Source: Heliocidaris erythrogramma (taxonomy: Eukaryota > Echinodermata > Echinoidea > Camarodonta > Echinometridae). From it: a DNA stretch of 64,000 bases. The stretch covers positions 58,675,233-58,739,232 of the forward strand of contig CM046853.1 in NCBI GenBank assembly GCA_025617745.1, in the 5' to 3' direction. The notes under the pieces are model-generated. The model did no database searches. It saw nothing but the letters and a program-made list of their open reading frames with translations, and had not been told where the DNA came from. A program made the position numbers and the translations under genes. How positions within the stretch are numbered: the first letter of the stretch is position 1; each line of letters begins with the position of its first letter. Positions 3,645 to 36,951 of this stretch are shown one piece after another.

Positions 3645-3787
3645 CACAGTACTGTTGCGGATCACCGGCTTGGTGACAAGTTCATGTGTGTTTATGGGTA
3701 CCGTGTTTATGTTGCGCTCTAAATTAAATGAATGTCCCCCTCTTACGTTAAGTACCATACAGGACGTACGGTGCGTAAAGAAATAAC

Positions 3788-3823
3788 CACAGAACTCCAA
3801 AAGACGTCTTTTGGAGTTCTGTG
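3788..3823. mobile_element. 36-bp perfect palindrome with 8-bp target-site duplication
   Basis: The left half is CACAGAACTCCAAAAGAC and the right half is its exact inverse. It is flanked by identical 8-mers GAAATAAC at 3780-3787 and 3824-3831. A second copy with a different 8-mer lies at 36499-36531. An 8-bp duplication is typical of hAT-like transposition. The insert has room only for two terminal repeats. Confidence 0.75.
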
Positions 3824-3979
3824 GAAATAACTCGCCTTCCTTTCATCATCATCGCTGAAGGAATTTTGTTGTACATGTCACATCGACGTACTAAAACAGG
3901 TCATGAAAATATGACCAATTGTTTATCAAATTCTCTTGACGTGCCTTACTTACAGGATGAGAAGGCCGGGTACTTAAAT

Positions 3980-4456
3980 TGTCATACAGTGTACTAGCAG
4001 ACCCTTCCCCCTCCCCCTTCATTTTGGGCTGGCTTGTGTTTCTGTGCATATGTGGCTTGTGTTTCTTGTGTTGTTTTGTGATTTTATCCCGTCCTCTGTC
4101 CTGTCCTTTCTTTTTGTCATGTCGAACTGTGCCACATTGTCTTTTGTGTCTTTTCCATCTTCACCTCTTTCACTTACTTGTATCCTGGATTATACCAGTA
4201 AGTGATCTTGTTTTCCCCGTAATACCTTTTGTAAATACATCTCACTGTCAGATGCACTTATTGCATCTATTTTTTTTCCGTGTTAATTGGAAATAGTTAC
4301 TAACATGCCATGAGGGGCCTTAATTTTACAAGCATTGCTTTCACCAAGGTCTCCTCGTCTTTCTTTTCAACTATTTACAGTATAAAAATTTTGCATTGTT
4401 CATTTGTCGTACCTACACTATATAAACTTGAAACTTGAAACTTGAACTTGAAACGA
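3980..4456 (+). mobile_element. Possible 3' tail of a non-LTR retrotransposon
   Basis: A T- and C-rich segment ends in a run of AAACTTG units (about 4425-4454), the kind of short tandem tail that some LINEs leave at the 3' end. No reverse transcriptase frame is present. The call rests only on the tail. Confidence 0.35.
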
Positions 4457-7400
4457 AGGCATAGCAAGAGATTAGAGAAGATTATATCATCTTCTGTCAA
4501 CCAACTCATTCTGCTTCAGATTATCACATTCAATGAAAAAATACAATCTACTCCCATGCCCATCACAGTAACCACGTTCTATGTCCGAACTATTTCATTC
4601 ATTTTTATTTTTAAATTACTCTTTTATTCTTAAATTTTTTTCTCTTTTTGCAGACATTTTCTGTAGCATGCAATATGGTGCTTCAGCAATTTTATATCTC
4701 AAAGGAAATAAATTAATAAAATAAAAACAGACCTCTTAATCCTCTGTCACTACTTACATCATGAACATTGGTGTTAAAGAAAACAAACGCACAGACTGCA
4801 TTTTGTCCACATTCACATACAGGTACTCATACACCACACATATTTACTAAAAATAATAAGTACAACACACCGCTTTTACTAGTCAAGTACACATTTCCCA
4901 TCCATAATTTATTTTCTATTCAATAAGAAAACAAACCGCTAGATGTATAAGTGTGAATGCATGTCAGCAATGCCGTATATCTTACAGTAAAAGATAGTGT
5001 ACATGTTCCTGACTAGCAAATCACAGAATATTTAGTGGTAGACTTTGGATAGGTGAAAATATATTCTCAGTGTAACACATGGTATGACAGCACTGCTGGT
5101 AACCATTTAAAAAGATGTGTACACACATCATGTGCTTGTAATGCGCATTACAGTACAACCATGTGAATGTACGATAAGAACTCTCTTAAAACATTAAAAT
5201 AAGATTACATCTTTATACATGTACAAGTACAACAGCATGAAAATTTTTCTTCAACCAGTGCCGGAAACAACTGACCCAACATTTTCTTTAATAGTATTCC
5301 AAACCCTCAAAAAAATGTTTCAATTTTTTTTTTCTATGTGTTTCTCTCCTAACTCCAAAAGACTGCTAAGATGAACACACACAAACATCCTTTTGCAATC
5401 AAACAATTATTTACACAACGCTTATTTACAATACGACATGGTTAAATTTGCTGTATTCATCAGGTTGTTCATATCGCACTTTCCTACCAGTTCTGTCTCC
5501 CTCACCCTAGCATCTCAATGATTCCATACATTGGAAAAAAACCTCTATCAACTAGCCGATTTGTTTCCCCCTGCCGTGTTAATGTTTCATACCACAATAG
5601 CATGCCAGGCTATGTACAAATAACTGGTAGGCACGCATCATTTCTTTTTTTCTGTAATGTCATATTTACATGCACGAAGCTCAACACATGGTTTACATGA
5701 TGGAGATCTACAGGGTCTAACCTGCCTCAACCTGATCAATACCTATATGTACATGCACTTTATACAAAAGTATTCATTTACATGGCTTTAATGTACAATG
5801 TAACTGTGTACAGCTGAATTCCTGGTCCTTAAATTGTAGTACATTTTTTAAGTCTCTTCTCAATGAAATATTTCACTAGGACATCTTCCTTCTCTAATTA
5901 GCTTCATATAACATTATCAGAACATCCTCAAGAACACACATGTAATATGTCATGCTACAGATCATCTTCTTCCTTATAGAATTTAGTGTAAGTATAATTG
6001 ATAATAAACTAACACTTTACAGTTTATATAGCAAAATAAAAATCTCTACCAAAAGGGCAATTTCACATGGGGAAGGTCACAGGAAAGATCTGCACAATCA
6101 TTTCAATTCACAAGATTGTGTTGGGTTTTTTAAAGTTGAAACTTTATTATATATATATTTTTTAGTTTCACCATGTTTATGTCTTCTAAGAGCAAATATA
6201 GTATTTCCACATTATCAACTGACCCTATAACAGTTTATCTTTCAGTTCAAAACTAATGCTAATCCATACCACGTATAGCAAAAAAACTAGTGAATTCTGT
6301 TGCCATCCATGTGAAATTGCTCAATATCTAAAAGTCATTTATGATGCTACAAAACATAAAATAACATAACAATGTGCATTACTGGAATATAGAGTGAATA
6401 TGAATATGAAGCATATTTTCCTCTTTTTTTTTTTTACTTAGGTTTTAGAATACAAAATAATTTACCATAAATATTTTTGAAGCATTTGAGCTTAGCAAGA
6501 TTTTATAAGTGGTTTGTTTTGGGTTTTTTTGGTTAATCAGTCGACATAAAATTTAAATCATACAGGGAAATACAACATTGCACTTATCAGTGCATTTGAA
6601 AAGAAATGACAAGGGAATCACTTTGCTCGGATCAAATTTCATACAAAGGTATATAATGTCAACACATAATTGTACTAGTATGCTTTATCAAACAAGCATT
6701 TCCAAATCCAAATATTCATTCATTACAACCTTGTAGTCCTCTGTCAAGTTATTAAACAATCATTTTCTGAACATTTGCACTACTGTGCCTTTAAAAACGT
6801 ATTAGTGTAAAATAATACATATTTCTTTTCAAACTCACTATCACCAAAGTAATGAATTACAAACACACATGTCAACAAATACAAACAGAATACAGTGGAA
6901 ATAAATGATGTTCCAAGCATTTTTAAAAGTACATGTATCCTCAAAAGTCAATCTTGGTGATGACAAGGAAAAGGCTACAGATTTCTGGGCTCACAGCAAT
7001 CAAGTAATTCTTTCCAACCAGATACCCAATTTTCAACATATCTCGATCAAGAGTGGCAAACACAGATGTCTCGCTGAAGGACAACAGTGGCATGCAAATG
7101 CTCCCACCTACAACATACAGCTCTAGTCAAGTTTTCAAAGTCAATGTACATGACTACAGCTCCTCATGTCCAAAGTGGTCTCAACCATTCCATGTACATC
7201 TACATGTACATGTACATTCCATTCCAACATTGTACTGACTTGGGTTATTGAGGTATATTTACTGATAAATGAAACCTTAAATTGAAAGATAATTGGCTAC
7301 AGAGTAGATGATTCATTGCAAAATTTACTTTCTCTATGAACTTACAGTAGGTATTTTTCGGACATTTTCCTAACAGGACATAAAATGTTGCTATAACTTG

Positions 7401-8300
7401 CAAATTTTTCTTAATAATATTTTAAGCCCTTACAAATCAACAATATTGTTCACCATCAAGTAGAACTTCTTGTACAAATAATTGTAAATATAAAATAATG
7501 AACTCCTCAATCCCATTCAGCGCAAGCAGAGGTCTTTTTGTAATTCTACTAATGCCTAATGACAAAATTGCTTTCAAAATGTTCAAAATAAGTCTAATTA
7601 ACCTCTTTTCTTTCTCATTTATTGACCTTGGTGAAATGCTATTAATCTATGCGACGTACACCAAAATTAATACAAAGCACATTGATGTCATTTAATCTGA
7701 CAAATTAGACAAAATATTTTTGTCCCCCCCCCCTCCCCGCTAACCATGTGATATATAGGTGACATCCACTTATATTTTATGGAATTTTATGCATTATACT
7801 ACCTCTCAGGAGTGTGAACATACATTTATATATGTATTCATTCAGACTCCACCTCATATAGTGAGCACATGATTCCACAAAGGAATCACCCTGGACTCTT
7901 TGATGGATGCTGACATAGAGGTACTGTACTTAAGTTATCAAAATGCTATCTTGAATTGATATTGCTAAAGTGACCAAATAATGAATGCATAATTAAAGAC
8001 CATGCTAATGCAAGAAGCAGGTTTTCCAACTTGGATTAGTACAAGATTTTACCTGTTTTTGTTTTGTTCAATGTGTGCTTTCATATTGACCATTCTTTCC
8101 AAGAATATGAAATACTAGATAAGGTTCAACAAATTATCAACCCTGCTGAAACTGTGCTACAGACAGAATAGAATCGATCACCATCATTTCACAAATAGTG
8201 CAAAGTATGCTTATAAGTGCAAATAAAATACTCTAACCAACACCTGCATGTACGCCTAGCCCATTACAATACAGCATACACTTCATTGGACAACTTTCGT
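4457..8300 (-). other. Probable KANSL1 3' UTR and downstream DNA
   Basis: AT-rich, without convincing coding sequence on either strand. It lies directly downstream of the KANSL1 stop codon on the minus strand. Several AATAAA hexamers occur on the minus strand, so the cleavage site cannot be chosen by eye. The motif TACATGTACATG recurs, for example at 7195-7215. Confidence 0.4.
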
Positions 8301-9023
8301 TCACCTTTTGGCAAGCTTCAGAACTAAGCTTTCACTCATGGTTGAGCCTTCTAGCTTTCGTGATCGCTGCTGATCTTCCACAACAGTCCACTCTGGATCA
8401 TTTGGATCATCTACTTCCATTGGTTCACCTTCTGAATTCTCTCCATCTGACATGTAGAGATTCATCTCCTGGGATTCTGTCCTTGAAATCACACTCTCTG
8501 AATGTGTGGCATTGCTAGCACGTGAGCTGGGTCGGGTTGAGGGTTCCGATTCTGGATAGGGATACGTAGCTATCTCTTCCATGTCGTTGTTGTTCAGTGG
8601 AAATTGTCTCTTTACCCAAGTCAAATTGTTCAAAGGGACAGGGGCCTCGAGTTGCTTTGGTGTTTGCACTTCACTCATACTTGATGACCTGCGACGGTTT
8701 AAGGCACTGAAACGCAGTGACCGACTTCCACTCAGGTTGAAGACATTACTGCTGGTACTGCTGCTTGATAATTGGTCAGGAGTTGTAATTGGGGATGGAC
8801 TAGGTGTTGGAGATGATGTCGATGACTGCCTCCCGGTTGATAGCTGATCTAGATGAAGATCTGGTGACAGAGGATCTGTGACACTGCCAATGCTACTGTT
8901 CCTAGATCGTCTAGATCTCCGTCCAGGTTTGCCATGATCCACAAAGCTCACCATAAACTTCTGCTTCTCCAGGCATTCGCAAGGCTCATGGCGCTCAAGA
9001 AACTCATAATCTGACAGGATTTC
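8301..9023 (-). CDS. KANSL1 coding exon 7 (end of PEHE and C-terminus)
   Basis: Acceptor CCCCCCTACAG. It encodes EILSDYEFLERHEPCECLEK, the end of the PEHE region, then RRSRRSRNSS and a long Ser/Pro-rich tail. Near the end LTWVKRQFPL parallels the PWERRTFPL motif near the human C-terminus. The stop codon is at 8301-8303. Confidence 0.9.
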   Translation of the reverse strand, partial: EILSDYEFLERHEPCECLEKQKFMVSFVDHGKPGRRSRRSRNSSIGSVTDPLSPDLHLDQLSTGRQSSTSSPTPSPSPITTPDQLSSSSTSSNVFNLSGSRSLRFSALNRRRSSSMSEVQTPKQLEAPVPLNNLTWVKRQFPLNNNDMEEIATYPYPESEPSTRPSSRASNATHSESVISRTESQEMNLYMSDGENSEGEPMEVDDPNDPEWTVVEDQQRSRKLEGSTMSESLVLKLAKR

Positions 9024-12000
9024 CTGTAGGGGGGAATGAGTATACAAACTTAAATATCAACTTGGAAACGACTGTGTAACTAACAAAAAAAAAAGAAAAT
9101 CAAACAGCTCCATGTGTAACTGTGCATGTGTAACTGTACATGAAGCACTAAAATAAACATACATGTACACCACTGACCGTGCTAGGTAAATATTCATAAA
9201 ATGTGAGGAACACTAACTGGCACATACTAAGTTCCACAAAGGGCAAGCCTTGTCAATTTGAGACACGGTTAAGGAAGTAGGTAAACAGGATTTCTTCAGA
9301 CTGTGAATAGGGTTGAATTCAAGTTATTATTAGAGGTTTGGTAAGCCAAATAGTATTTGTAATGTAGGATTTAAATCAATAGTAAGACATAGAATTTTAA
9401 GCTGTGGCAGATTTTTTTGAACCTCCTACTGGGATCTAAATGGTCTTTGTTTCATTGTTTTCTTCTGTATTCAATTCCAGTACAGAGTATTTAAAATTCA
9501 AAAAGACTAACACACTGACACAGCATTGTCTATACATGACTACCGGCCCAATGGAATCTGGACTTTCATTATACAGGGCTCAACCAGTGTGGTCCCCGAA
9601 CAAAAAAAAATTAAAAATTGCAACTGGGAAGGTGTATAAATTGATGTGTGCGAAGCGCAAAGTCCTTATGGCCAGGGTCCAGAGCCCGCTTGAAGGCCCT
9701 GGAAGCTCTGTGGTTCTCATAGGCTCTTTTGTGCAATCTCAGCCATATTTTGAAGCACTTCAAAATAATTTGATGACTAATATTTCATAAATAATTTGGT
9801 TGAAAAATTATTATTTATCAAATTTTAACCTGTTGCTGAATTTCAAACCTGTAGTTTCAAAATTCAAGCTTGTCACTATTACATATTAATACCCTCGTGG
9901 ACCACCCTGGCTCAACACTAAAGTCAGTCCAGGGGCCCCGTTTTCATAAAACTTATTATAAGCTACTGAAATCCTTGCATTTTATTGGCCGAGAACAAAT
10001 TTGTTATAGATTTTTGACAGTTGTTATTGATAACAAATTTTATGAAACAGGGCCCAGTAGTCAATGGCCTCCTCCATATTCATTTTGAACTACAGGATTC
10101 CAAATGTGTCAACAGGGACCGACAGTACTTGACGTGAAACCCTTGAACTTAAATCCAGACCCAAGTAAAGAGAAAGTTTGTGTGGAGCAATGAGTGAACA
10201 CAAAATTGTGTTTCACAAGTAATACTCATACACTTAAGCAATTTCCTTTTAACTTATCACATGAAGGACCTTCTAAAACTGCAATAGTTTTATCTACAAT
10301 GAACAGGATACATGACTGCATATTAACATTACACTCCTTCTGAATCAGACTTACATATTTGCCGTTAAAGTTACTTAATTACCTTTTTCAATATTTCATG
10401 GAGCAAGAACATTTTCCAACTTAAAGGGCAATCCAACCTTGGTAACAAGATGATTTGTGTGAAAGCAGAAAAATAAAAACAGGATGGTGAAAATTTGAAA
10501 GAAAACGGACAGGGACTAAGAAAATTATGGATGTTTGAAAAATGAGATCACTACATCTATGTGAATCTCAAATTGGCAATTTGGTGAGTCGATTGTGACA
10601 TTTTTGTGGACAACTCTCGCGTTTGTCGTACACAAAAATATCATTAATTTGGGGCAGTACTCAAAATATATGGGAGAGAGCATATTGTTATAGGTCCTCA
10701 TGAAAGAATAAGATCCTACCACGTAATACATTTTTCAAAAAGTGATATTTTGTCATTTTGTGTGTTGGAGCGAATGGGGGAGTTGTCCATAGCTACATCA
10801 GTGACATTACATGTACCTATTCAGCCAACTTGAAATTCCCATATGTATAGTGATTACAACTTTCAAAAATTCATTTCTTATCGCTTGTCCGATTTCATTC
10901 AAACTTTCACCAATCTGCTTCTCTGATTTTTCCTCTTTCTTTCAAAGCAACTTGCTATTAAGGTTCGATTTCCCTTTTAGTACTCCACTCCTTCATTATC
11001 TCTTTAAACAAAGTCACAAACAAAATCATTGTTCAGATCTTGTCTTAACTCTTCTATTTTTTTACTAATTCTAAACCTCCATATATAGCACAATCGACAG
11101 GCAAGCAGGCATGCATATGACGCACTAAGCAGTTTTGTAAAGCAGACTGTAATTACTGCAATACTGCAGCTGCTGACCCAACTCTGTGTGATGGATTTGT
11201 AACTAAGACCCCTGTTACACCAAAATCCTAAGAAGACTTGGGCGCCCCAAGACTGGTCTCGGGTAGGTATTTCGGTGTAACAGGGGTAAAAGCCCGCCCC
11301 CCGAAACATGATTAACTTGAAATACATTTCCCTTGTCTTTCAATCTATTAAAAACCTACTAAATACCTTGCAGTATGTGGAAGCAATATACAATTAACAT
11401 TAATGTATATTAAGTTTTCACATCAGGTGTAATTTGAATGACCTAATATTGGCATCAACCCTCCATGCAACAGAAGGATGACTATCTGTAGAAAAGTTAG
11501 TGCTAAACTTAAAAACATGTCAATGTTACAATACTTCATCAGCAGCGAGGGTGCAATGATATTGGGATACAATACACTCCAGACATACAGGCACACAACA
11601 TGTGCCTCTGACCCAACTACAAGTACATATATTGGGTTTTCATGTGCATATATAGATCATAATTTGAGAGTTTCGAGAGATGACTGAAGGAATTAATTCT
11701 AGCAGGGATTTCCCTTCGTTGAAATACAAAGATGTAAACTTGTATCACTCTAGAATGCAGGCGTCTTACAACTATTTCCTAGTGGCATGAGTAATCAATG
11801 AAAAACTGTGACTCATACAGACTGTAGTAATATTGCTGGTTGTTGGCTATGTCCCTGCACTACCCTGTACCCTTATGCATTCCATCAGCTTGTTCAGCTA
11901 AAATAGTGTGCCATGTGCAAAGCATATTTTATGAACCAAAATGTTGAACTGTCATGAAACTTTGCTACAATTAAATTTCCCAGCAGTAAGTAGAAGACAT

Positions 12001-15000
12001 TCTTGGACACCTTTCAAATTATGCATTAATTAATATTTTTTCCCCATAGCTGATAGATAGCACAAGTTAAAATTTTGAGAAAAAAAAAAGCCTTGAAATT
12101 ACATTTTGCATGCGAGATATGGAGCTCATACCAAAACACAGTCCCATAACTTGCATTCATGGGAAGTTTTTTATTTTGGAGGCAAAGAAAATAATTTCAA
12201 ACCTTGCTCAGGGTAAAAGTGACTGCGTGTGTGTGTGTCGTCCAGTGAATTACCAGTAATATGATTCCTGTCACATGAAATACATTCTTTAGTGATAAAT
12301 ATTGCTAATATATGCAGGGAAATCAACCTTAAAGTTCACTGCAATTGGAGGCATGCAAGTACAATGTACAGATGCTTGCAAATATGCATTCTTTTTCTGG
12401 GCATGTAAGCAGTTAGGTCTCAACAGATGTGCAGGTCCATGCAGTTTAAGCAGTAAAAACAAAAATAACTGGGATATGGCTTTTTACCTCAAAGTACTCA
12501 TCCTCATCCTCATCCTCCTCTTCCAGTCTGTTTTCTTCATTCTCATGTGCATGGTGGTTGTTAGACATAAACTCCTCCATATCCAGCTCCCTCCACTTGG
12601 GTGTAACAATCTCCTTGTAGTTTAGCTTGACCACCCTAGTTGATGCAAGCATAGAGTATGGGATCACTATGTTGTCAATGTCGTAGGATTCCACCATACC
12701 CTTCTTGTTGCGCAGTATACCATGAAGGGATGCAGACGGGAGTGAGTGAGACAGATGTTGGGTGGGTGACCTGGCTTCAATCGAAGCAGAAGTAGATGGT
12801 ACAGAGGCGTGGTCTCCAACTTCGATGTTTGGCAGAGACATACTACGCTCTCTACTCTTCTCCAAGGCAGCTATTGGACAATAAATAAGATAACACGAAG
12901 AAAAATTGAATAAACAATATACCATGCAATATATTTCTAGGATTTAGCTGCAGCACAGAAATTGTGCTCTACATCCTCTACTACCCATGCACCAATGCAC
13001 AAATATTTCTTTTAAAAGGGTATCAATTGTCAGGTGTTTGTACTGTAATATTTTTTAAATTCATCTTCTCCTTTGAAGTAGAGATTTATTCCAAAACTAT
13101 AAACTAGAACATCACTGAAGGTGATTAATACACCCACCCCAAGTGTGTGCCAAATTTCCTGAGCATTGCTCCAAAAATGGCAACGCAGTTGGCCACACAT
13201 TGAAACATGTCTTGCACATCTTTACCACAGGAACAATGTGTGTGCCTAATTTCATCAGCATTGCTTGAAAAAGTTAGGAAGTTGTTCGATCCACAATATT
13301 TCCAGATTTATTGCCATAATGTCAATACCATGGCAACACAGTTTCCGACACATTAAAAAAATATGTCTAGCACATCTCCATCCCAATACAAATGTGTGTG
13401 CCAAATTTTACAAGCATTGCTCGAAAAATGAGGAAGTAGTTCGATCCACATGATTTCAACCTGATTTGTCATAATATGCCGTTGCCATGGCAACGCAGTT
13501 TCCCAAACAATAAAAAAATATATCTTGCACATCTTCATCCCAAGACCAATGTGTGTGGCGAATTTCATGAGCATTGCTCGAAAAATAAGGAAGTAGTTTG
13601 ATGCGCAAGATTTCAACCCGATTTATTGCCATAATATGCCGTTACCATAGCAACGCATTTCCGACACATTAAAAAAAATGTCTTGCACATCTTCATCCCA
13701 AGACCAATGTGTGTGGCGAATTTCATGAGCATTGCTCGAAAAATAAGGAAGTAGTTTGATGCGCAAGATTTCAACCCGATTTATTGCCATAATATGCCGT
13801 TACCATAGCAACGCATTTCCGACACATTAAAAAAAATGTCTTGCACATCTTCATCCCAAGACCAATGTGTGTGGCAAATTTCATGAGCATTGATGGGTAC
13901 TTAAAGCACCCATGCACAAAAAAATGACTTTTCATATAAAAACAAAGGGATTTACTCTGCAAATGGTTCTACCAGAAACAGTCAAGTTATTTCATGCTAA
14001 AAATATCCATAAGGGATAAAGTATTAAGCCTGAGTCGAATCGATTGGTTAGCCGGTGTTCGATCGAAGACATCGAATCCCGAATACGTTTTGGCAAATTC
14101 GGTGCATCGATTTGTAGTCCGCCAGATTTTTGACTACCGTAGCCACCATGAAAAAATCAAATAAAAAAAGAAACTCCGTAACGTACAGCATATATACTAG
14201 CAGAGAACGTGAAGGCGACTTCAAAGTTCAAACTGTTGGCTAACTTTCGCTAATTCGCTCGCGGAGGACGTCGCGCTTTACCTGTGCTTTCTCTATGGAA
14301 AAATCGTTTTGTCGTTGCAAACTGAAGTTTACGATAATTTTCTTGCACTCTCTCTGCATTGTCAATTTGACAATTGTATAATTGAACATGATAAATACGG
14401 GCATGAGTACGAGTGTTCCTACTTAATTCGCAATAACTAATATCACACTCTCATCAAATTGGCAATTACTTCTGAATGATCTCTGAAGCTGAATGAAGTA
14501 GAGTCTATATTGAGCGACGAAAAGTTTATTTCGTATTGTTTTTTTTTTTTGGCATCGAACAAACGTGTTCCATTCAGCTCTCCAAAGACAAAGTAAGATT
14601 ATTAATTCTTTGAATTTGAATCATTGGTGTGTCGACAATGAGCATCGCTTCGTGCGACACTAGTGACATTTTAGCTAGCCATACGGACTAGAAACTTAAG
14701 ATTTTGGCTCGTCCGCTGTGATTTTTACTAGCCATTGGCTAGCGGGCTATCGTTAATTTCGAGCAGCGAGAGCCCATACATATGCCCGCGATGCCAGCGG
14801 ACCGGTCACCGGTGCATGGTGCATGCACTACGTGCAACTGTGTGCAACTCTGTTTTCACCGCACATCATTTATCGATTAACCGGTATTCGATCGAATCAA
14901 AGCCGTCGAATCCCGGTTTATGAAATAATCGATATGACTCAGGCTTATAAAGTATATCCTGTTAAATGACTGAAATTGTTAACTGAATAATATGTCTACA

Positions 15001-18000: not shown

Positions 18001-21000
18001 CACAGAAAAATTAGAGCAATCAATGACAGTCACATGTAGTAGTTCCATCAAAATTTTGAGGTGTTACATAATAGTATTATAGTTATAACATGCAGCTACA
18101 TGAAATGTATAACTTTATTCCTAATAACTTACTTCTTTCCTAGTGATCTGGCTGAATGTTTCCTTTGCCAGGCTCCACTTTTCAGAAGAGATTCAAAGTG
18201 TAATGTCAATGGAATTTCTGAAAGAGATAAACAAAAAATAGTTAACACTTTTAAGCAAAATATGGACAATAATAAGAACAAATTTTTTTAAAAAGCACAT
18301 AAAAATACTGACCTAATAAATTGCAAGGGGGTAATTATTTTTAAAAGTTTTTCTACCCTTGTCTTATCCTGTCAAGGCTGTAAATACATAAAGAGATGCT
18401 GATGCAACTTTTATTCACATTACGCAATAGCACTTCTTTGTATTATGCAATAATTCTTACATGTCATCTCGAGAGAAAGTGTAATGTTTCTTCACAACAC
18501 TTATATATCATTACTCAAGAATCCTGCCACTACCATTTTTCTGTATTGATTATAACTCAAGAAAGATGAATAATATAGCGCATAGAAACAGGATTATTTA
18601 TTTTGACTCCCGACTCTTGATCTGCCCAGCATTCCATAGCCAACTGAATTATAATTGCAAAAACCAGTGTCCTACACAAATAACATTCTCAAAATTAAAA
18701 AAAAACAGGTGTGCGAACATTCAGAACATTTCCAGCACTATTATGAACACCTGGACAATTTTGAGAAAGTGTTACCTAGTTTCCCTCTAGTAGCTTTTTA
18801 AAAATAAAAGCCCTTTACCTTTCCCCTTACTCACCTTCGGGGAAAGACAACACTGAATGGAATGCATATTCAAGGCTGGCCACCCTCTCATCTGATGGGA
18901 TCTGGTCTGCATCATACTGTTCCACGTTGTTGAATCTTCCTCCACACATTACACAAGGAGTATGAGGAGGAAAGCAGCCACACTGAACCGTTGACAGCTT
19001 CTGGGCCTTTCTGCATACTTGGTAGAGACCAGTAGACCGGATGAGTTTCCGCTTCCGAAACTGTCTGACAGGTCTGGTTCTTGCACAGTACTGTTCTTCT
19101 ACAGGAATTGGAGAGCCTGTAACTTGGTCTAGTCCTACAATCCCAGGGTAGCTGGGCGAACTGTTCATCCCACATCGAGATGAAGGTGTTGCGACTGTTG
19201 TTGCATTGTCTGTTAGACCATTCATTGGTCTGGCTGGTGATGTTTTGTCTTGACATGTTGATGATGACGACACAGGTGAAATACAATTCTGAAGACTCTG
19301 CTTTAGTTTTGCACTTTGCTTGTCAACATTGCTGAGTAAGCTGGACAGGTTCGAAGGGGACATTGAGTGAGATCCTTCTAACATCACAATCTTTGTTTCA
19401 AGCGGTGACAACTTTCTACCTGTCCTGTGAGCCAAAGCCTGAGCTCTGAGATACTCCTCTGGTGATGGAGGTTCTCCTAATGTCACAGCTCCCTTTGTAG
19501 CCCGAATCTGGCGGAAAATATCACTTTGTTGCCTGATGCGATATTCTAAGTCTGACACCTGAGCCTGAAGCCATGTCCACCTGGTTGCAATAGCCGAACG
19601 ATCCATTGCCCATTTCCATGATGCACGTCTGTGACTGTGATAAACAAAAGAAAAGAAGAAAAGAAAATTGCAGAGATTTTGCAAGTTGATATACTCCCAG
19701 TAAACAATACAGTGACTTGCGAGGAGACTAGTAGGCGTACCCGTTGTGTGTGCCTGTAATCCAGCTAATAGTGGAAGTTATAAACTGATTCAGCGGACCC
19801 AGGTTCGAGACCAAATCACGTCTTTCGGATGGTAACATTAAAAGTCATTCCCCAGACGTAAATAAACATATCTGATTGACACACATCTATAAAAACCCAA
19901 TTACACACACACACGCACTCGCATAGAATAAGGGCCAGCATGTAACCAAATTTGGAGTTTGGTTATGTGCAAGGGGGTTTTATGCTTTCTTTAATTTTTT
20001 CCAAGCTCCTGAACCGTTTACCATTACAAAGCCAGGTAAAATGTTTTGAAGTTTGTTTTATACATTCTATGCTTTCTAGCTGTACACAACTTATTTTTAC
20101 AGGTGATTGGTAAACTTTAACATTAACCATTTCTTCTATTCCTCCTTGGTGACAACAAAAACATACTCACAGAGGCATTTTATGAAAGGACCGGGAGGCT
20201 TGGCTTTGTGGTAAGCTGTCATCTCCTTCATCACAACTCTCCCCACCTGAGCTGCTATCAGTGACATCTGAATCTATGGTACTTTCAACATGACCAAGGC
20301 CAGCTCGAAGTCGTCCCGTGACGGATTTAACCTCTCGGTATGCCTGTTTCCCTTCTCGCAAGTGTTGGGAAATATGTGTACTGGGCTTAGTCCTTTTTCC
20401 AGCTGGTAACCATGATGGTCTTACAGTATGTCTTTGCCGGTCTGACGAAGAATTAGTATGGAGAGGACAAGTGTGGCTATGACTTGAACTACTTCTAGGA
20501 AGTACACCAGGTCTGCTTCCTGTCTGGAGCCGATTCCTGCGGCACTCTTCACAAGTAACAGTGCTACTTGCTGCAGAGTTAGCAGCTTCTTTACTAGACT
20601 GTTTTGACTCTACAAACGAACCAATTTGATGATATATGCGTGATCCTACATGACAAGTCTGTAATCTTCTCAACTTCTCCATCAAATACTTAGCTCGATG
20701 TTCTTGTTTTGACTGTTTATGCACCAAATTGGTGACTTCTTTCTTCTCTTCGTCAGTGGTTTGGCTATTTTCAATCACAATCTTGAACAATTTTTTCTGA
20801 TTTAATACCTGCTTTATTCGTACCTGTCTACTACATTTTCTTTCTTCTTTTTGCTTATCTGGAACAGGGTCTAATATTTCCCTTTCGTTATCTGCGACCT
20901 TGTGACACGTTCCACTATGTTCATCAGGAATGATTGCAGGCAGTTCAACAATACTTTCATGTGCATCACTTTCATCATCTGATTTGGCATCAAGAGGGTC

Positions 21001-21807
21001 ATCAACTTGTTCAACTTCAAGACTGGTATCTGTCGTGAGTGCAGTGGATAATGACAAACTTAATGAGCTGTCCATGTCGTTTGACAAAGAGCTGCTCGAA
21101 GTATCACTCGTATCAAGCTCACCATGCTCACTTATATCACCATTGTCTCGGATATTGACATTATCAATGTGAGCAGCAACAGAATGCTTTGTGCCAGTTG
21201 GACTGGAGCTGCCAGTTGCAGATATTGTTAAAGGCGGCATTTTAGATGCTGATGATGTACAAGGGTGAATATCATTCAATACCTCTTTCTGTGCCAAGGA
21301 CGCAGCAGAGTCATTCATTGTTTTCTGTATGCTTTGTTTTGATGAATGTCTCTCACCATTCGTAACTAGGTCCAGATCCAGGCCTGAGCCAATGGTGGAA
21401 ATTAATGAATTCAACTTATTTTTGATTTGGCCTTGACGATGGTTTGAAGAAAGCAGCCCCTGATAACTTTGCTCCTCTGTGATTCTTGTCACTGTCTCTC
21501 TTTCCTTGTGATTATTATTCTCCAGGAAATGGGTATGAATGGTGAAGCAAGTTGGTGATGCCGATGGCGAGTCCTCGTGATTTCTCAATCGTGTAGGCCT
21601 AGTAGGGCTAGGCGAATAACACTTTCCAATAATATCAGGAACAGCTGGAGAATGACCATTCGCCAGCGAGGGTAAGTCTGGGCTTGTTGGCTGATGTGGA
21701 TTTGCTTGTAGGCCACCACTGCTACCTGGGTTGGCAGGCGAAGCTGGCAACTTGAAGGAGCCTGTATGCGCCGCGGCATCAGTCAGTGCCGGAGCCATTG
21801 CAGCCAT
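8301..21807 (-). CDS. KAT8 regulatory NSL complex subunit 1 (KANSL1), complete gene of 7 coding exons
   Basis: KANSL1 is the nuclear scaffold of the NSL complex, which acetylates histone H4 through KAT8/MOF at active promoters. The seven exons join with compatible phases (total 4071 nt, about 1356 residues; human KANSL1 is about 1100). Landmarks in order: the conserved start MAAMAPALTD; DSDVTDSSSGGES near the end of exon 1; the WKW...RWTWLQAQVSDLEYRIRQQ block near residues 552-585; the WDR5-binding ARTRPV at about 730-735; a Cys-rich PCVMCG segment; acidic and basic low-complexity regions; and the PEHE domain from about 1051 (YDIDNIVIP) to about 1145, the MOF contact. An in-frame ATG ten codons upstream (21837) exists, but the family start is at 21807. 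The boundaries of exons 2 and 4 have nearby in-phase alternatives. The closest alternative name is KANSL1L, a vertebrate paralogue. Confidence 0.93.
9932..10055. mobile_element. MITE with GGGGCCC(C)GTTTCATAAA ends
   Basis: It starts GGGGCCCCGTTTTCATAAAA and ends TTTTATGAAACAGGGCCC, an imperfect inverted match. 124 bp with no coding capacity. Confidence 0.65.
10421..10979. mobile_element. TIR element with TTAAAGGGCAATCCAACCTT ends
   Basis: The left end TTAAAGGGCAATCCAACCTT matches the inverse of the right end (TAAAAGGGAAATCGAACCTT) over about 20 bases. 559 bp with no supported frame. Confidence 0.55.
11208..11287. mobile_element. 80-bp hairpin MITE
   Basis: The ends ACCCCTGTTACACC and GGTGTAACAGGGGT are perfect inverted repeats of 14 bases. 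The centre contains a second palindrome CTTGGGCGCCCCAAG. No obvious target duplication. Confidence 0.65.
12488..12870 (-). CDS. KANSL1 coding exon 6 (PEHE domain, first part)
   Basis: Acceptor TTGTCCAATAG and donor TTTGAG|GTAAAAA (phase 0). It encodes a Ser-rich lead, then YDIDNIVIPYSMLASTRVVK and LNYKEIVTPKWRELDMEEF. That is the signature start of the PEHE domain shared by KANSL1 and MSL1, through which MOF is bound. An acidic run (EEEDEDEDEYFE) follows. Confidence 0.93.
13130..13890. repeat. 158-bp tandem satellite
   Basis: The phrase AATGTGTGTGGCGAATTTCA with GAGCATTGCTCGAAAAAT recurs near 13144, 13236, 13391, 13548, 13706 and 13864. The later units are exactly 158 bp apart and nearly identical (for example 13544 against 13702). 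The first units are more divergent. A single diverged inverted copy lies at about 47070-47325. Confidence 0.88.
14027..14945. mobile_element. 919-bp TIR element flanked by TA
   Basis: Its ends are inverted copies starting AGCCTGAGTCG. The inner phrases TCGATTGGTTAGCCGG and TTCGATCGAA are repeated in inverse at the right end. TA lies directly outside both ends (14025-14026 and 14946-14947), so TA is the likely target duplication. No transposase frame, so it is non-autonomous. Confidence 0.7.
15840..16001 (-). CDS. KANSL1 coding exon 5
   Basis: Acceptor CACCTTCCACAG and donor AAATG|GTGAGATTC. In phase it encodes LKALRHVRSDKLLSRSRSQP and then PGTPKNIMKSSDLRQCRTDI, a basic Ser-rich linker. Both boundary phases (one base in, one base out) fit exons 4 and 6. 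Confidence 0.82.
16002..16971 (-). other. KANSL1 intron 4
   Basis: 970 bp, AT-rich. Open frames at 16615-16872 on both strands are not supported as exons. Confidence 0.8.
16972..17252 (-). CDS. KANSL1 coding exon 4 (charged low-complexity region)
   Basis: Acceptor TACTCCAAAG. An in-phase alternative 12 bases downstream gives an exon from 17240. The donor is CAAA|GTAAGTG. The exon encodes a Lys/Arg-rich stretch (KDGRLKKFRKKEKHQQKQL), then a Glu-rich one (EVEKEEESANEEEDDA), then RKLLHRLARQ. This is a likely disordered linker before the PEHE region, in line with the basic His/Lys-rich stretch at this place in vertebrate KANSL1. Confidence 0.82.
17253..18132 (-). other. KANSL1 intron 3
   Basis: 880 bp, AT-rich, with short poly-T runs. 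No repeat or exon recognised. Confidence 0.8.
18133..18217 (-). CDS. KANSL1 coding exon 3 (85 bp, below ORF-finder size)
   Basis: Acceptor CTCTTTCAG and donor AAGAA|GTAAGTTATT. In phase it encodes IPLTLHFESLLKSG followed by AWQRKHSARSLGK, which continues FHSVLSFPE from exon 2. It matches the vertebrate pattern of LAFPDDVPTSLHFQSMLKS. Confidence 0.9.
18218..18834 (-). other. KANSL1 intron 2
   Basis: 617 bp, AT-rich. Nothing recognised besides its splice sites. Confidence 0.85.
18835..19634 (-). CDS. KANSL1 coding exon 2 (core block and WDR5 motif)
   Basis: Begins after TTTATCACAG. A second in-phase acceptor six bases downstream (exon from 19628) is possible. It encodes WKWAMDRSAIATRWTWLQ and DLEYRIRQQSD, the most conserved block of KANSL1, then a Ser-rich linker. 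Next comes CARTRPVRQFRKRKLIRS, whose ARTRPV is the arginine motif that docks in WDR5. Then follow PCVMCG and LEYAFHSVLSFPE. The donor is CCGAAG|GTGAGTAAGG, leaving one base. Confidence 0.92.
19635..20170 (-). other. KANSL1 intron 1
   Basis: 536 bp with GT-AG ends. It holds a tRNA-SINE-like dispersed repeat (19748-19918) and nothing else recognised. Confidence 0.85.
19748..19918 (+). repeat. Dispersed SINE-like repeat with CA tail, copy 1
   Basis: It runs GCCTGTAATCCAGCTAATAG, GCGGACCCAGGTTCGAGACC (B-box-like), CGTCTTTCGGATGGTAAC, CAGACGTAAATAA and AAAACCCAATTACACACA. An inverted copy with the same order lies at 46591-46760. Both end in a (CA)n tail, as expected for a retroposed SINE. Confidence 0.75.
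20171..21807 (-). CDS. KANSL1 coding exon 1
   Basis: Encodes residues 1-545: the family N-terminus MAAMAPALTDAAA, a long Ser/Thr-rich disordered region, and near its end DSDVTDSSSGGES, a phrase conserved in vertebrate KANSL1. The donor is CCTCT|GTGAGTATGT, leaving two bases of a codon. Stretches such as LKKVTNLVHKQ-like Lys/Glu segments near residues 340-390 resemble the predicted helical region upstream of the conserved core. Confidence 0.9.
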
Positions 21808-22800
21808 ACATAGCCTCAGCGGGAACTGTGACCACATGCGATGGGAAGCGAAGCGCTACGCGGACAGGGTACCGTGGGAACGGCACCACTGTACGACGTT
21901 ACCCTCGCCATTGATCAGAGGACATGGCTGAAATAGCTTTCAAAAATCAACCTGTCAGACACAATCATAAGTTTTATTTTCCTTTAATATCAGACGAATA
22001 TAAAGTTATTCACAATACAACTGCAAAAATGGTCAACAGCATACAGAATATGATAGAGATTGATATAGTTCAACTTAGCCCGCTCACGTAAACATCGGTC
22101 CCAAGAAGGCTAGGCGGAGATTCTCGCGTCGACCGTAATGGAAACAATAACACTTTTCATCACATATCCCGAGCGATTTACCACACGTGACACCGGACCA
22201 ACATGATGATGTTTCCCGCGCTAAAAACATTGAAAAGTTCAATTCCATCATCATAATTTTTTACATATGGAGGTTTCCCATCTTTAAACGGGACATATGT
22301 TGATAATCATTAGACAGTCAAAAGATGATATTCACTCAGAAACAACGTTGCACTGACGAATGTCCAAACAGAACGTTTCGAAAGGAATAATAACATGGAC
22401 GGTAATGAGAATCAGCACCACGTGACCCCAGGTTCCACGTTCGTGGCGAACAATCAAGCGATCTGTGCATTCGGGTTACACCCTATAATTTTCCGAATTG
22501 ATCAACATGTTTTCTGGCTCTTCACAAAATATCATATCATGTAGTATGTTCCGTAGGGATAATCAATGAGTCCGCATAGTACACGCATCACATTATGCAT
22601 CTATTGACTTCCATGTCTAAACTTACGACGCCGAAAAAAAAATCGTGTAATATGGCGACGTGCTCAGGCATTGATCTCCATTCCCACAACAAAAAAATGC
22701 AGGCGACTTCATTAACATCTGCCTATACGTCAATTGGGCTACCCCCTATAGGAAGAATTGCGTGATTGGCTGATCGCAGCTTTTGGATTTTACGGATAAT
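21808..22800 (-). promoter_or_regulatory. KANSL1 5' UTR and upstream promoter region
   Basis: The region just upstream of KANSL1 is richer in CpG than its surroundings. It holds a CACGTG E-box at 22419-22424, an E2F-like TTTCCCGCGC at 22212-22221 and a YY1-like AATATGGCGAC at 22649-22659. No TATA box is obvious. The start site is not determined. These are motif matches only. Confidence 0.4.
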
Positions 22801-32020: not shown

Positions 32021-32027
32021 GCCATCA

Positions 32028-32430: not shown

Positions 32431-33000
32431 CAACCTTCTAAAAATGAAAGTGAAAGCAGTGCCCTTTTTTGCAACTAAAGTGAGCATTCCAAATTAAAGG
32501 AAAAGCCCACACTGATATCAAATTGTTTTTAAAAGAAGCAGAAAAATAAAAAAAAACAGTTCAGTGAAAGTTTGAGCAAAATCGAATCTGAAATTTAAAA
32601 AAAAAATGTTATGAATTTTTGGAGTTGTCAATGAAACACAAATTGGCAAAACTGCCTTGATAAAAAAGGGGCACAAACTAATAGTTGTGTACTTAAGGTA
32701 TGGCTCTTGGGTTTCCGAAGGGGCATGGGCGATGAATAAGCCCCCCCCCCCCCCACAAAAAAAAAAAAAAAAAAAAAAAAGAAAAGAATCTGCCAGTGTG
32801 TAAATATATCAATGACGTGTGTGTTTTTGTGCATTGTATTTTCCCCCCAAATATATTATATTTTAAAAGTGACTTGTCTAAACCATGCGATGCTTACCCC
32901 GTGTTCCTTGAACAGAATGAACAGTTTCCCCTTCTCAAAAGGATAACTTCCCCAGCACTTTTTTGACGAGCGCTTGTCATACGGGTGTCTCATTTGCAGC
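32431..33000. other. Intergenic, AT-rich with homopolymers
   Basis: It contains a C-run and A-run pair (about 32740-32780). Nothing coding. GGGTTTCCGAAGGGGCATG near 32710 resembles the internal sequence of the GGCGGATCC family. Confidence 0.5.
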
Positions 33001-33167
33001 ACACCTCCAGTGAGGTAATGAATATGCATATCATGACGTCATGCTACAGTAGGTTGATAGGTATTGAATATGTATAACATGACGTCAACCTCCCGAAAGA
33101 CCCGCCAGACCCGCCAGAAAATTTTCGGCTGTGCATCACTGAAATCAACTTCATGCATGTGGAGCGC

Positions 33168-33591
33168 ATCTATATATAGAGGGAGTGGAGCACACCTGCA
33201 GTGCGGGTGAAGAAAAGACTCTTCGTATTTTCAACGATGTATAACATTATAAAAATAACCATCAAAATCAATTTCATGTGGAGCGCATGTAGAGGGAGTG
33301 GAACACACCTGAAGTGCGGGTGAAGAAAAGACTCTTCTTATTTTCAACGCTTCATATGAAACCGGGCTCGCACTGAGGGCGGGGGGGGGGGGGGGTCCAG
33401 ATCCATGCTACAAATAACCAGGGTCCATCAAGAGAATGATATCAATATCAGCTGATTTGAGATTGATATCAATACAAATGTGTATTCTAAAGAGATAGGA
33501 GTTGCGATTGATATCAATATCAAATGAGTTGATATTAATATCATCTCTTTATAGACCCTGGTTATTTGCAGCATGGATCTGGATTCCCCCG

Positions 33592-33649
<58 letters not shown>

Positions 33650-34115
33650 CCCTCAGTGCGAGCCCGGTTTCATATGAAGCGTTGAAAATAAGAAGAGTCT
33701 TTTCTTCACCCGCACTTCAGGTGCGTTCCACTCCCTCTAGATGCGCTCCACATGAAATTGATTTTGATGGTTATTTTTATAATGTTACATCGTTGAAAAT
33801 ACGAAGGGCCTTTTCTTCATCCTCTAGATGCCGTCCACATGAAGTTGATTATTAGAATGGTTATTTTGATAATGTTACATCGTTGAAAATAAGAAGAGTC
33901 TTTTCTTCACCCGCATGCACTGCAGGTGTGCTCCACTCCCTCTAGATGCGCTCCACATGCGCATGAAGTTGATTTTGATGGTTATTTTAATAATGTTTCA
34001 TATTTGAATCGTTGAAAATAGGAAGGCTTTTCTTCACCCGCACTGCAGGTGTGCTCCACTCCCTCTAGATGTGCTTCACATGAAGTTGATTATTATAATA
34101 GTTCGTACTTGAAGA
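33168..34115. mobile_element. Long foldback element with tandem subrepeats in the arms
   Basis: A left arm (about 33170-33440) and a right arm (about 33545-34110) are inverted copies around a short AT-rich spacer of GATATCAATATC motifs. Each arm carries tandem units of about 113 bp: two on the left (AGGGAGTGGAGCACACCTGC at 33180 and 33293) and about four on the right. Innermost are CCAGGGTCCATCAAGAG / CTTTATAGACCCTGG, then a poly-G tract (left) and a 58-base poly-C tract (right). Foldback elements with tandem repeats in long arms are known in sea urchins (TU family), but whether this is TU was not tested. Confidence 0.8.
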
Positions 34116-34868
34116 GTTATTTCCTTCACACGCAATAATTAGACTATATTGTATGTTTACCCGGGATGCTTACATGGATAATTGTCACATTAGCATTTCA
34201 ATTTTCACCAAGGTCAGCTCTATTGTGTTGGCCCACGATACGATGTACGTTTGCTGATTCCTTATTACTGACCGGAAACTCTATATTGTTAAATTATGAA
34301 AGGGAAAAGTATCTACAATGGGGACATATAGTAATCCAAAATGTAGCATGGGTCTAGCTGGTGAGGGGGCACCGGAAATATGAGGTAAATGAAATTTGAT
34401 AGAACAACGTCGAACTTGGAGTAAGTTTGCTTGCATGGGAGGGGGTTATATCTTATGCTGCCATTCTACCCTCCCTCTCTTTCGGGCTCCCCCCTCTCCA
34501 TTTGATGCCGGGAGGGGCCGCGTGCCCCCTGTGCCACTTGCTCTGCCACTGTTTACAAATTGTGTTTTTAAAGATGTCTTCTTCAAATTTATAAGTCTCT
34601 TCTTGTATATACAAATATGAATTATTATTATCATTGTTACCATTGTTACCAGGCCTATTATTATGAATAAAAGATAGCGCTAATTTGTATAAAGGAAGAT
34701 ATATCAACAATGGCCGGGAAATACCGGAAGACAAAAAACGACCGACACTATATCTCTTGTCTCTTGTGCAAAAATCCCTTTGTGCTTGGAAAAATAAATA
34801 AACAACGACTAGAAATATATTTTACCTCTCCTCAACTCCGCTCACCCTTTTCATATTGTATACCCTTC
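34116..34868. other. Intergenic, nothing recognised
   Basis: No supported gene or repeat. Confidence 0.5.
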
Positions 34869-34981
34869 AGGGGCGGATCCAGGCTCTTGTATAAATGAGG
34901 GGGCACAGAGCCAGAAATTTTATTGTGTACTTCAGGGATGCCAGTTGGGTTTCAAAAGTGGGGCCCCGGATCCGCCCCTGC
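34869..34981. mobile_element. Dispersed GGCGGATCC element, copy 4 (short)
   Basis: It starts CAGGGGCGGATCCAGGCTCT and ends CCCCGGATCCGCCCCTG, a clear inverted-end pair only 113 bp apart. It is the most compact member of the family seen here. Confidence 0.7.
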
Positions 34982-35087
34982 CCTGTTTAATGGTACAGGG
35001 CCGACCAGGGCCGTTCAGCCTTAATATATGCTAGATGATCTTGATAATATTATAATCAAGAAGATTATTGTAGCGCCGGGGAGGTCT

Positions 35088-36951
35088 AGTAAATAACAGA
35101 CAAGAAAAAAGGTTAAGATGTTGTAGCTGTGATGTGGCTTACACAAGTCACTTTTATTATATCGAAACTTATAGAAACATATACTAAATACAGAACATGA
35201 TACAGAAAAATAATCTTTCCTCAGTTAGCTTGACTAACCTAGCATCCTCAATGAGTTATTCACACTTATGATCCTATAGAACTCACCGACTAACATATTA
35301 AAACACAAACTAATCTATACATTAACCATAATACAACTAATCATATCCAGTATTATCATAAGGCGTAATAAAACTGTAGAAAATAAAAGAGAAAAGATAG
35401 AGAGAGAGAGAGAAAAAAAAAGCACAGAGAGAGAGAGAGAGAGAGAGAAAGTAGGAAAGGAAAATCATAGTTCTAGCAAAATACCTATATCACATTTCAT
35501 TCTTGTAAAACTCATAAACCATTAGTCTTGTATCATAAATTCAACAGTCTTGTATCATAAATTCAGCTTATCATTTCTATATTATTCCCATATCACAATA
35601 CAAAAGGATAATAATCGCATATACCCTTAGGCATCGGTAAATAATGTCTGCAAACTAGACTAATCAATATCATGTATTAAGTCAATAACAATAATAATTC
35701 ACTTTGAGAGTCAAATAGAAAGTACTCAAAATATCAAAGAGAGCAATATCATAAACTGTCCTTTACCGTAAACGATAAAACTTTCTTCTCAATAGACCTG
35801 TTTACTAAGTGATTCAAATTTATGGATGTTCTTTCCTGGGGACCTATAGTAACAAAGTATTAACCCGTTATTAATGAATGAACTACAATATTTGGAATCA
35901 AGTTTGCATACATTACTTGTTGCTATGTCTGACAAGCCTCTGGCAAGCTTTCAGGTTGTCAAGAACAACATTCGTTTCAAAAGTATGCATAAAATTTGAA
36001 TCACTTAGTAAGCAGGTCTATTGCATCATCAGACAGTCATAAAAATATATCCTGTCCTAAGACTCATTCTTTTAAGGAATATATAAGCTATAAATATGTG
36101 AATGTTGGCTTTATCATCCATACATTTCCAAATAATATCCTTACTATTTTTATTCTGAAGATGAGGATCATTCATGCATTCTAGATCCTTGAATTATATA
36201 ATATCCACTTTCAATTCCTCACTCTAGTGTTAGCATATCCCCTTAGGAGTACAGTACCTCGCTTTATACATGTATCAAGTTTATCCATGAAGCTACAAAC
36301 CAATGGCTTATCTAAACTTTGCCAGTACTGTTACATAACACACAGGCTAAAATACCTCTGAAGGGCAGTTACGGTCTTACGCAACCACTCATGACCCAAT
36401 GTCTATCTGTGCAGAGACCCTCCCTACTGACAAACACACATGGTCCCGTGTATTGTACCCGTATACACACTCGTATGTTTGGGAAGCCTGGGGTATCTCA
36501 CAGAACTCCAAAAGACTTTTGGAGTTCTGTGGGGTATCTCCGCTACCATACTTTCTCATCGCATTCACAAAGAGAAAATAGTCTATCATCATACTTAACA
36601 TAATAACAATGGTTACTTTGGAGAAGGAAATAACTTTCCTCCCATACATACACATACATTAAAGAATTACATGAGATGGGACAATTATAAAGAAAATGCT
36701 CTTAAATGAAAGAAAAATGTATATAATTATTAACTTTCCACTCACTTTCCAAACTCTCAAGAGGTAAACTGAAATTATACTTTAAAAATACTGTCATATT
36801 CTATGCAACATCGGCTTGATGTGATTATTAACATATAATATGAGTTGCAACAATGGTCTTTCAGAATAATTGCAAAACATATAAATACAAGAAAGTATGA
36901 AAATGTCTCTTTTCTAGTAAATAACAGATAGCTGTGATGTGGCTTACAAGT
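35088..36951. repeat. Short direct repeats bounding an AT-rich 1.8-kb segment
   Basis: TCTAGTAAATAACAGA and TAGCTGTGATGTGGCTTACA occur at 35088-35147, separated by about 20 bp. They occur fused at about 36914-36950. The segment between is AT-rich, with a GA microsatellite (35398-35449), and has no coding sequence. It could be a retroelement remnant or a duplication. Confidence 0.45.
36499..36531. mobile_element. 33-bp palindrome with 8-bp target-site duplication, second copy
   Basis: CACAGAACTCCAAAAG, one central A, then its exact inverse. It is flanked by identical 8-mers GGGTATCT at 36491-36498 and 36532-36539. It shares its arm with 3788-3823 but lies in unrelated flanking sequence, so the two are independent insertions. 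Confidence 0.78.

What the first reader, a model, noticed from the sequence alone, without database searches (positions are those of the whole stretch)
3780..36539. A 33-36 bp palindrome inserted twice with exact 8-bp target-site duplications: a transposon reduced to two end repeats?
Seen directly: at 3788-3823 and 36499-36531 the same arm (CACAGAACTCCAAAAG) is followed by its exact inverse with 1-4 central bases. Each copy is bounded by a different perfect 8-mer direct repeat (GAAATAAC; GGGTATCT). Two independent inserts with separate duplications are hard to explain by chance or by shared ancestry of the flanks. Known: 8-bp duplications are made by hAT-type transposases. Inference: this is one of the smallest mobilised units possible, consisting only of head-to-head terminal repeats.
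Basis: partly seen in the sequence, partly recalled or inferred. Interest (0 to 1): 0.8.

Follow-up and report, generated by a model that had tools for sequence, protein, structure and literature searches.

The report
Scars left by departed P-type transposons
The two short palindromes are most likely repair scars left where a jumping gene related to the fruit-fly P element cut itself out, and scars of this kind recur across this animal genome, recording how the jumping gene cuts DNA and how the cell mends the break.

Summary
In detail: 36-bp and 33-bp palindromes stand at 3788-3823 and 36499-36531 between perfect 8-bp repeats. The arms are the outer part of a 28-bp terminal repeat of a large transposon whose 8-kb copies encode a P-element/THAP9 transposase, not a hAT one. 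The palindromes look like excision scars rather than mobile units. Of the first 100 exact arms in the genome, 42 do not continue into an element, and all 42 stop at nucleotide 16-20 of the repeat. Laboratory P-element excision scars in Drosophila have the same anatomy with 17-nt tails (PMC2895639 Table 1). Among 114 distinct scar sites fetched, junctions range from 23 to 42 bp and 91 keep a perfect 8-bp duplication. A few paralogous sites share duplication and flanks but carry different scars; others are empty with one 8-mer. T-arm elements predicted T/T scars, which were found. At least 327 sites match the scar patterns, duplicated copies included. New part: inferred 20-nt tails end in self-complementary ACGT, which would explain the dominant 36-bp product.

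The parts
3780..3787 (.). left 8-bp target-site duplication GAAATAAC of scar 1
   Evidence: sequence
3788..3823 (.). scar 1: 36-bp palindrome = 20 nt of each end of a P-type transposon sharing ACGT (20+20-4), or 18+18
3824..3831 (.). right 8-bp target-site duplication GAAATAAC of scar 1
   Evidence: sequence
36491..36498 (.). left 8-bp target-site duplication GGGTATCT of scar 2
   Evidence: sequence
36499..36531 (.). scar 2: 33-bp junction (18 nt + 16 nt sharing one base, or 16 + 18); the same junction with the same arms stands at C17:26339219, with T/A arms at C1:52206235 and C1:54249381, with T/T arms at C1:28939184
36532..36539 (.). right 8-bp target-site duplication GGGTATCT of scar 2
   Evidence: sequence
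58989..58996 (.). empty paralogous target site: GATCGTCC once here, but twice around a 36-bp scar at C14:38949734 (L086), flanks 96.5% alike over 201 bp

Best explanation
The palindromes are excision scars of a P-superfamily cut-and-paste transposon. SHOWN: the genome holds large copies with a 28-bp terminal repeat CACAGAACTCCAAAAGACGTAGAAGGCT and 8-bp target duplications; 8-kb copies encode a THAP domain and an 869-codon P-element/THAP9 transposase ORF; two of these copies differ by 1 mismatch and 2 gap openings over 8029 nt, so movement was recent. SHOWN: hundreds of short sites keep 16-20 nt of one or both terminal repeats, joined in many different ways, and most of those fetched keep the 8-bp duplication. 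INFERRED: the transposase cuts one strand at the transposon boundary and the other about 20 nt inside the repeat, as the Drosophila enzyme does 17 nt inside, so the donor break keeps long 3' tails copied from the terminal repeat. The cell joins the two identical, inverted tails by end joining at microhomologies. INFERRED: because the tails end in ACGT, which is self-complementary, the favoured product is the perfect 36-bp palindrome (20+20-4); the 33-, 29-, 28- and 26-bp products come from nibbled tails using 1-2 bp microhomology.
For: Family: PF12017, PF21787, PF21788, PF21789, PF22824 and THAP PF05485; solved Drosophila P transposase 6p5a, E 4.8e-17. Elements: 28-bp repeat; of 18 single-element pairs examined, 15 have identical 8-bp flanks, 1 has one mismatch and 2 (L026, L028) do not match. 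Sharp cut: of the 42 non-element arms among the first 100 exact arms, TIR kept is 16 (1), 17 (2), 18 (6), 19 (5), 20 (28); over the 137 non-element arms in the loci fetched by then, many of them fetched because they matched short-junction patterns, it is 16-20 in 136 and 21 in one, probably a point mutation. Spectrum: 114 distinct sites, 91 perfect TSD, 7 with one mismatch, 16 with two or more; 66 of 117 site-junctions are 36 bp, the rest 23-42 bp. Same TSD and flanks, different scars: L062 29 bp vs L089 36 bp, 96.2% alike over 421 bp; L038 36 bp vs L102 29 bp; and, with a decayed duplication in L098, L098 33 bp vs L103 37 bp. Tail about 20 nt: joins GACGT|GTTCTGTG (L108; L170/L171) and GACGT|TTCTGTG (L155) keep 20 nt without overlap. 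Laboratory precedent: P{wa} repair junctions with the same anatomy (PMC2895639 Table 1, section read) and 17-nt staggered cleavage (PMC7776569, passages).
Against: No locus was found where the same flanks hold a full element in one copy and a scar in another; the genome search with the window's own flanks did not complete (first try, last). Of 114 distinct sites, 16 lack a recognisable duplication. One short insert breaks the 20-nt rule: beside the scar in L085 lies a decayed 58-bp insert between AGTTCGAC repeats that keeps about 43 nt of one element end. The 36/29-bp pairs could be one scar that later lost 7 bp, and repeat-borne hot spots exist where independent insertions landed 1-2 bp apart, so same-site pairs are not watertight. 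Tail length 18, 19 or 20 cannot be told apart from the 36-bp product alone. In Drosophila Table 1 a join that loses most of the tail (14 isolates) is as common as the commonest palindrome (14), unlike here. No excision was observed directly. Some sites are copies made by other repeats, so 327 is not a number of excisions.
Confidence: 0.92

Rival explanations
1. A minimal mobile element: the 36-bp palindrome itself is recognised by the transposase and moves as a unit.
For: Many copies of the identical 36-mer at mostly unrelated sites with separate 8-bp duplications (24 of the 27 intact-armed sites are 36 bp; 23 of 27 with perfect TSD, only L091/L092 alike in flanks).
Against: Junctions vary and recur in A/A, T/A and T/T arm backgrounds; T/T scars were predicted from T/T elements and found; same-TSD pairs carry different junctions; deleted copies of the Drosophila element need at least 138 bp at one end and 216 bp at the other to move (statement in PMC1562414, passage).
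Confidence: 0.03
2. Internal-deletion derivatives by aborted gap repair: after excision both ends are recopied from the sister chromatid and joined too early.
For: Such products are described for Drosophila P excision (PMC2895639, passages); many 3-5 kb deleted copies exist here; one 58-bp insert beside L085 keeps about 43 nt of an end.
Against: Aborted copying would stop at any distance inside the element; all 42 non-element arms of the first 100 exact arms stop at 16-20 nt. It may explain the 3-5 kb copies and the L085 insert but not the scars.
Confidence: 0.03
3. The superfamily is hAT (8-bp duplications) and the palindromes are hAT products.
For: 8-bp duplications; a GT....AC-like target preference, which hobo shares with P (PMC3276498 Table 4, passage).
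Against: The transposase is P/THAP9 with no hAT family in the Pfam list. hAT excision works through hairpins on the flanks (recalled) and would not keep 18-20 nt of both ends.
Confidence: 0.01

Closest known systems
Drosophila melanogaster P-element excision footprints (P{wa} repair junctions; PMC2895639 Table 1)
   Same: 8-bp target duplication + part of each terminal repeat head to head + microhomology or short insertions; common palindromic products overlap at self-complementary dinucleotides (AT, TA); nothing beyond the transposase cut is kept
   Different: tail 17 nt in a 31-bp repeat there; about 20 nt (inferred) in a 28-bp repeat here, ending in a 4-nt self-complementary ACGT; there also many joins that lose most of one or both tails; there induced in spn-A mutants in the laboratory, here a natural genome-wide record
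Zebrafish Pdre2 / THAP9 P-like elements (PMC10983969)
   Same: P/THAP9 transposase, 8-bp target duplication, internally deleted copies
   Different: 13-bp terminal repeat plus separate 12-bp subterminal repeats (section read); here one 28-bp terminal repeat; larger flanking deletions were reported there after excision by zfTHAP9 in S2 cells
Anopheles P elements and P-derived MITEs (PMC1562414)
   Same: 8-bp target duplications, non-autonomous relatives of autonomous P elements (passages)
   Different: those MITEs keep P ends of less than 100 bp and are proposed to be mobile; ours keep 16-20 nt per end and are read as immobile scars

Membership tests
P superfamily (parent element) | P-element/THAP9 transposase with HTH, split RNase H and GTP-binding insertion domains | tested here: met
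   five Pfam families above their cut-offs; 6p5a
P superfamily (parent element) | THAP zinc-finger DNA-binding domain in the element | tested here: met
   PF05485 E 1.2e-14 in a separate open stretch of L028; splicing to the ORF not shown
P superfamily (parent element) | 8-bp target-site duplication and terminal inverted repeats | tested here: met
P superfamily (parent element) | long staggered cut inside the terminal repeat (17 nt in Drosophila) | tested here: inconclusive
   read indirectly from scars: 42 of 42 non-element arms of the sample stop at 16-20 nt; no cleavage assay
P superfamily (parent element) | GTP dependence of the transposase | not testable with these tools
   only the GTP-binding domain match
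P-element excision footprint | target duplication kept, part of each terminal repeat up to the cut, variable microhomology junction | tested here: met
P-element excision footprint | a precursor insertion at the same site | tested here: inconclusive
   same TSD with different scars in paralogues; no element/scar pair found
hAT superfamily | hAT transposase domains | tested here: not met
   the Pfam list of the 869-aa ORF holds no hAT family at E up to 0.001
MITE / minimal mobile unit | unit amplified as such, with fixed internal sequence | tested here: not met
   variable junctions in several arm backgrounds
MITE / minimal mobile unit | mobilised by a transposase | not testable with these tools
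   no mobility assay

The most novel reading that the evidence does not exclude
This P-type transposon has evolved self-cohesive excision ends: the transposase leaves 20-nt 3' tails that end in the palindrome ACGT, so the two donor ends can anneal to each other like the ends left by a restriction enzyme, and the host break is sealed mainly into one stereotyped 36-bp scar. Helping the host to mend its own damage would lower the cost of excision to the transposon, and the genome keeps an archive of hundreds of such repairs from which cut position and repair pathway can be read without an experiment.
Probability: 0.4. Interest if true: 0.7.

Novelty: new member of a known kind. Interest (0 to 1): 0.52.

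Why it matters
P elements are a long-used laboratory model of DNA-break repair, and their excision scars are known to me mainly from induced Drosophila breaks (recalled, and PMC2895639). Here a natural genome carries at least 327 sites that match the scar patterns (145 + 509 rows, at most two rows per site, duplicated copies included). They allow the stagger of an untested THAP9-type transposase, the end-joining habits of a non-model animal and the ratio of departures to surviving copies to be read from sequence. They are also a warning for annotation: such palindromes with perfect target duplications can be mistaken for the smallest possible transposons.

Tried and rejected
hAT origin: rejected by the transposase. 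Mobile 36-bp unit: rejected on junction variety, arm types and same-TSD pairs. Aborted gap repair for the scars: disfavoured by the stop at 16-20 nt; kept as possible for the 3-5 kb deleted copies and for the 58-bp insert beside L085. Chance: rejected (0 control matches). Counting all scars as independent: rejected; 134 records collapse to 114 sites (a few records are the same place fetched twice), with one scar in seven copies of a repeat (atagccac), one in three (gtacgtac) and tandem copies on C8 and C10. Literature searches for natural genome-wide P-element scars showed none in their listings; the lists were capped at 12-20 rows, I saw titles and starts of abstracts, and subscription journals are mostly not held, so this is weak evidence of absence. 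The species was not identified. Rows left out: five rows that pair ends in nested copies (three L025, one L027, one L028; one of them has one mismatch); the L027 27-bp scar and the one-sided scars are not among the 114 because the pattern required TTCTGTG. In one search L052 counted as a scar with TSD through a copy 5 bp away; it counts as two or more mismatches. In one search arms within 3 mismatches of the 28-nt repeat count as element ends: 59, of which 53 go on into the known A or B end and 6 do not (L025, L028, L066 interrupted by another copy; L041, L042 a different interior; L085 the 58-bp insert). In one search one element arm is counted twice because L025 and L066 overlap (101 arms for 100 places).

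Full report
OBSERVATION. Both palindromes and both pairs of 8-bp repeats are present exactly as described. In the window the arm occurs four times exactly and once with three mismatches, against 0.72 expected with up to three mismatches.

THE GENOME. The window lies at C1:58675233-58739232 of a 1.06-Gb assembly in 26 contigs. With up to two mismatches the 16-nt arm has 1352 + 1419 matches against 303 + 289 for the reversed control. I took the first 100 exact arms listed there and classified each one from fetched DNA. 58 are ends of larger elements, 37 are arms of short scars with an 8-bp duplication (up to one mismatch), 1 is in a palindrome without one and 4 are short one-sided or decayed cases without one.

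THE PARENT ELEMENT. Larger copies of about 3-8 kb have a 28-bp terminal repeat CACAGAACTCCAAAAGACGTAGAAGGCT, followed by two different subterminal sequences that I call the A end (CATACCC...) and the B end (TGTGCGGG.../CGTGCGGG...). Of 18 single-element pairs examined 15 have identical 8-bp flanks and one has a single mismatch; the 8-kb copies L026 and L028 do not match and lie beside or inside other copies. Three 8-kb copies (L026, L028, L061) carry an 869-codon open frame; the L028 frame matches five Pfam families of P-element/THAP9 transposases, and a separate stretch matches THAP. The one solved sequence matched is the Drosophila P transposase. L026 and L061 differ by one mismatch and two gap openings over 8029 nt, so the family moved recently. 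THAP domains are said to be restricted to animals (PMC7776569, passage), which fits an animal genome.

THE SCARS. With intact A-arms on both sides there are 27 sites: 24 of 36 bp, 2 of 33 bp, 1 of 35 bp, and no control match; 23 of the 27 have a perfect 8-bp duplication. Allowing the second arm to be shortened gives 145 rows for A-arms and 509 rows for T-arms, both with no control match. A site can give at most two rows, hence at least 327 sites, copies by duplication included. From the sites whose DNA I fetched, 134 records collapse to 114 distinct sites by flank similarity: 91 with a perfect 8-bp duplication, 7 with one mismatch, 16 with two or more. Of 117 site-junctions 66 are 36 bp and the rest 23 to 42 bp.

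WHY SCARS. First, the terminal repeat is cut in a narrow place. The fair sample is, where arms were found by the arm alone: its 42 non-element arms keep 16 (1), 17 (2), 18 (6), 19 (5) or 20 (28) nt; the lower bound of 16 is set by the search arm. One-sided cases stop in the same place (17 to 19 nt in L039, L055, L056 and L057). Over the 137 non-element arms fetched up, many chosen by short-junction patterns, one keeps 21. One exception turned up: beside the L085 scar a decayed 58-bp insert between AGTTCGAC repeats keeps about 43 nt of one end. Second, the junctions vary, use one or two shared bases or short insertions, and the same junction types recur in A/A, T/A and T/T arm backgrounds. Third, arms follow elements: nine elements in the lists have an A-arm at the A end and a T-arm at the B end, which yields mixed scars; other elements have T-arms at both ends, which predicted T/T scars. 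I wrote the prediction down before the search that found them; 15 of 20 fetched T/T 36-mers have a perfect duplication and 4 have one mismatch, and of 20 other T-arm scars 16 have a perfect duplication and 1 has one mismatch. Fourth, paralogous sites: two pairs share flanks and an intact target duplication but carry different scars (L062/L089, L038/L102), and a third does so with a decayed duplication in one copy (L098/L103). Several scars have empty paralogues with the 8-mer once, among them L132 against L055 (65 of 65 identical), L007 against L027 and L042, and L086 against window 58897-59097.

MECHANISM. Drosophila P transposase cuts the second strand 17 bp inside its 31-bp repeat, leaving 17-nt 3' extensions (PMC7776569, passages). 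The donor break then carries 17-nt tails, and its repair products have the anatomy seen here (PMC2895639, passages, section 7 with Table 1): for example CATGATGAAATAAC(AT)GTTATTTCATCATG between two copies of the 8-bp target, 14 isolates; an equally common product there (14) loses most of the tails. Here joins that keep 20 nt without overlap (L108, L155, L170/L171, the last two with the same target) point to tails of 20 nt, ending in ACGT. Two such tails pair through ACGT, giving 20+20-4 = 36 bp, the dominant product. Tails of 19 nt (pairing CG) or 18 nt (blunt) would also give 36 bp, so the exact length remains inferred. The window's second scar, 33 bp, is the product of a shortened tail with one shared base.

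TARGETS. The duplications of perfect-TSD sites, read on both strands, prefer G first and C last (62%) and T second and A seventh (46%). Both Drosophila P (GTCCGGAC) and hobo (GTNCGNAC) show a GT....AC target (PMC3276498 Table 4, passage), so this does not tell P from hAT.

LIMITS. No excision was observed. No element/scar pair at one site was found, and the window's own flanks could not be searched because the tool stayed busy. Independent insertions 1-2 bp apart in the same repeat (L044/L117, L075/L130) show that hot spots exist, so the same-site pairs may in part be separate insertions or later deletions within one scar. The Drosophila requirement of 138 and 216 bp for mobility, cited against a mobile 36-mer, was seen as a passage of PMC1562414.

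VERDICT. A new P-superfamily family whose excision scars, including the two in the window, are abundant and well preserved. The kind is known from the laboratory; the natural archive, and the suggestion of a 20-nt self-cohesive tail, are the new parts.

Noticed in passing
L025, L028, L066: Element copies inserted into the terminal region of another copy of the same family (target GCTCATAC/GCTCACAC or GTGCGAAC next to the 28-bp repeat).
   Followed up: partly
L085 (C12:32812404-32812839): A decayed 58-bp insert between AGTTCGAC repeats keeps about 43 nt of one element end: a short derivative that is not of the scar type.
   Followed up: partly
L009:476-508: A full element copy lies at the outer end of an older scar (target GTTCTGTG), so an old scar served as a new target.
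   Followed up: no
L031, L035, L118, L123, L126, L128, L131: One 36-bp scar with target ATAGCCAC sits in seven copies of the same host repeat; the scar was apparently multiplied by that repeat, not by its own transposon.
   Followed up: partly
L044/L117, L075/L130, L007/L073/L109: Independent insertions 1 to about 8 bp apart at the same place in repeat families: insertion hot spots.
   Followed up: partly
window 8304-9056 (-), also 12449-12943 and 18830-21855 (-): Open frames on the minus strand; one has a PEHE-domain match below the curated cut-off (E 2.9e-05), the other three minus-strand frames scanned there had no match. A KANSL1/MSL1-like gene is my reading, recalled; scar 1 would lie beyond its 3' end.
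   Followed up: partly
window 53559-54098 (+): Ankyrin-repeat exon.
   Followed up: no
window 10418-10977: Stretches 77-92% similar to the interior of the 8-kb element, probably a shared repeat.
   Followed up: no
window 58275-58327 and 59501-59536: The same 17-bp unit ACCTGTCTATAGCGGCC in two tandem arrays.
   Followed up: no
C1:58652143-58652178 (L142): A T/T 36-bp scar with perfect duplication GTGTACCG about 23 kb before the window.
   Followed up: yes
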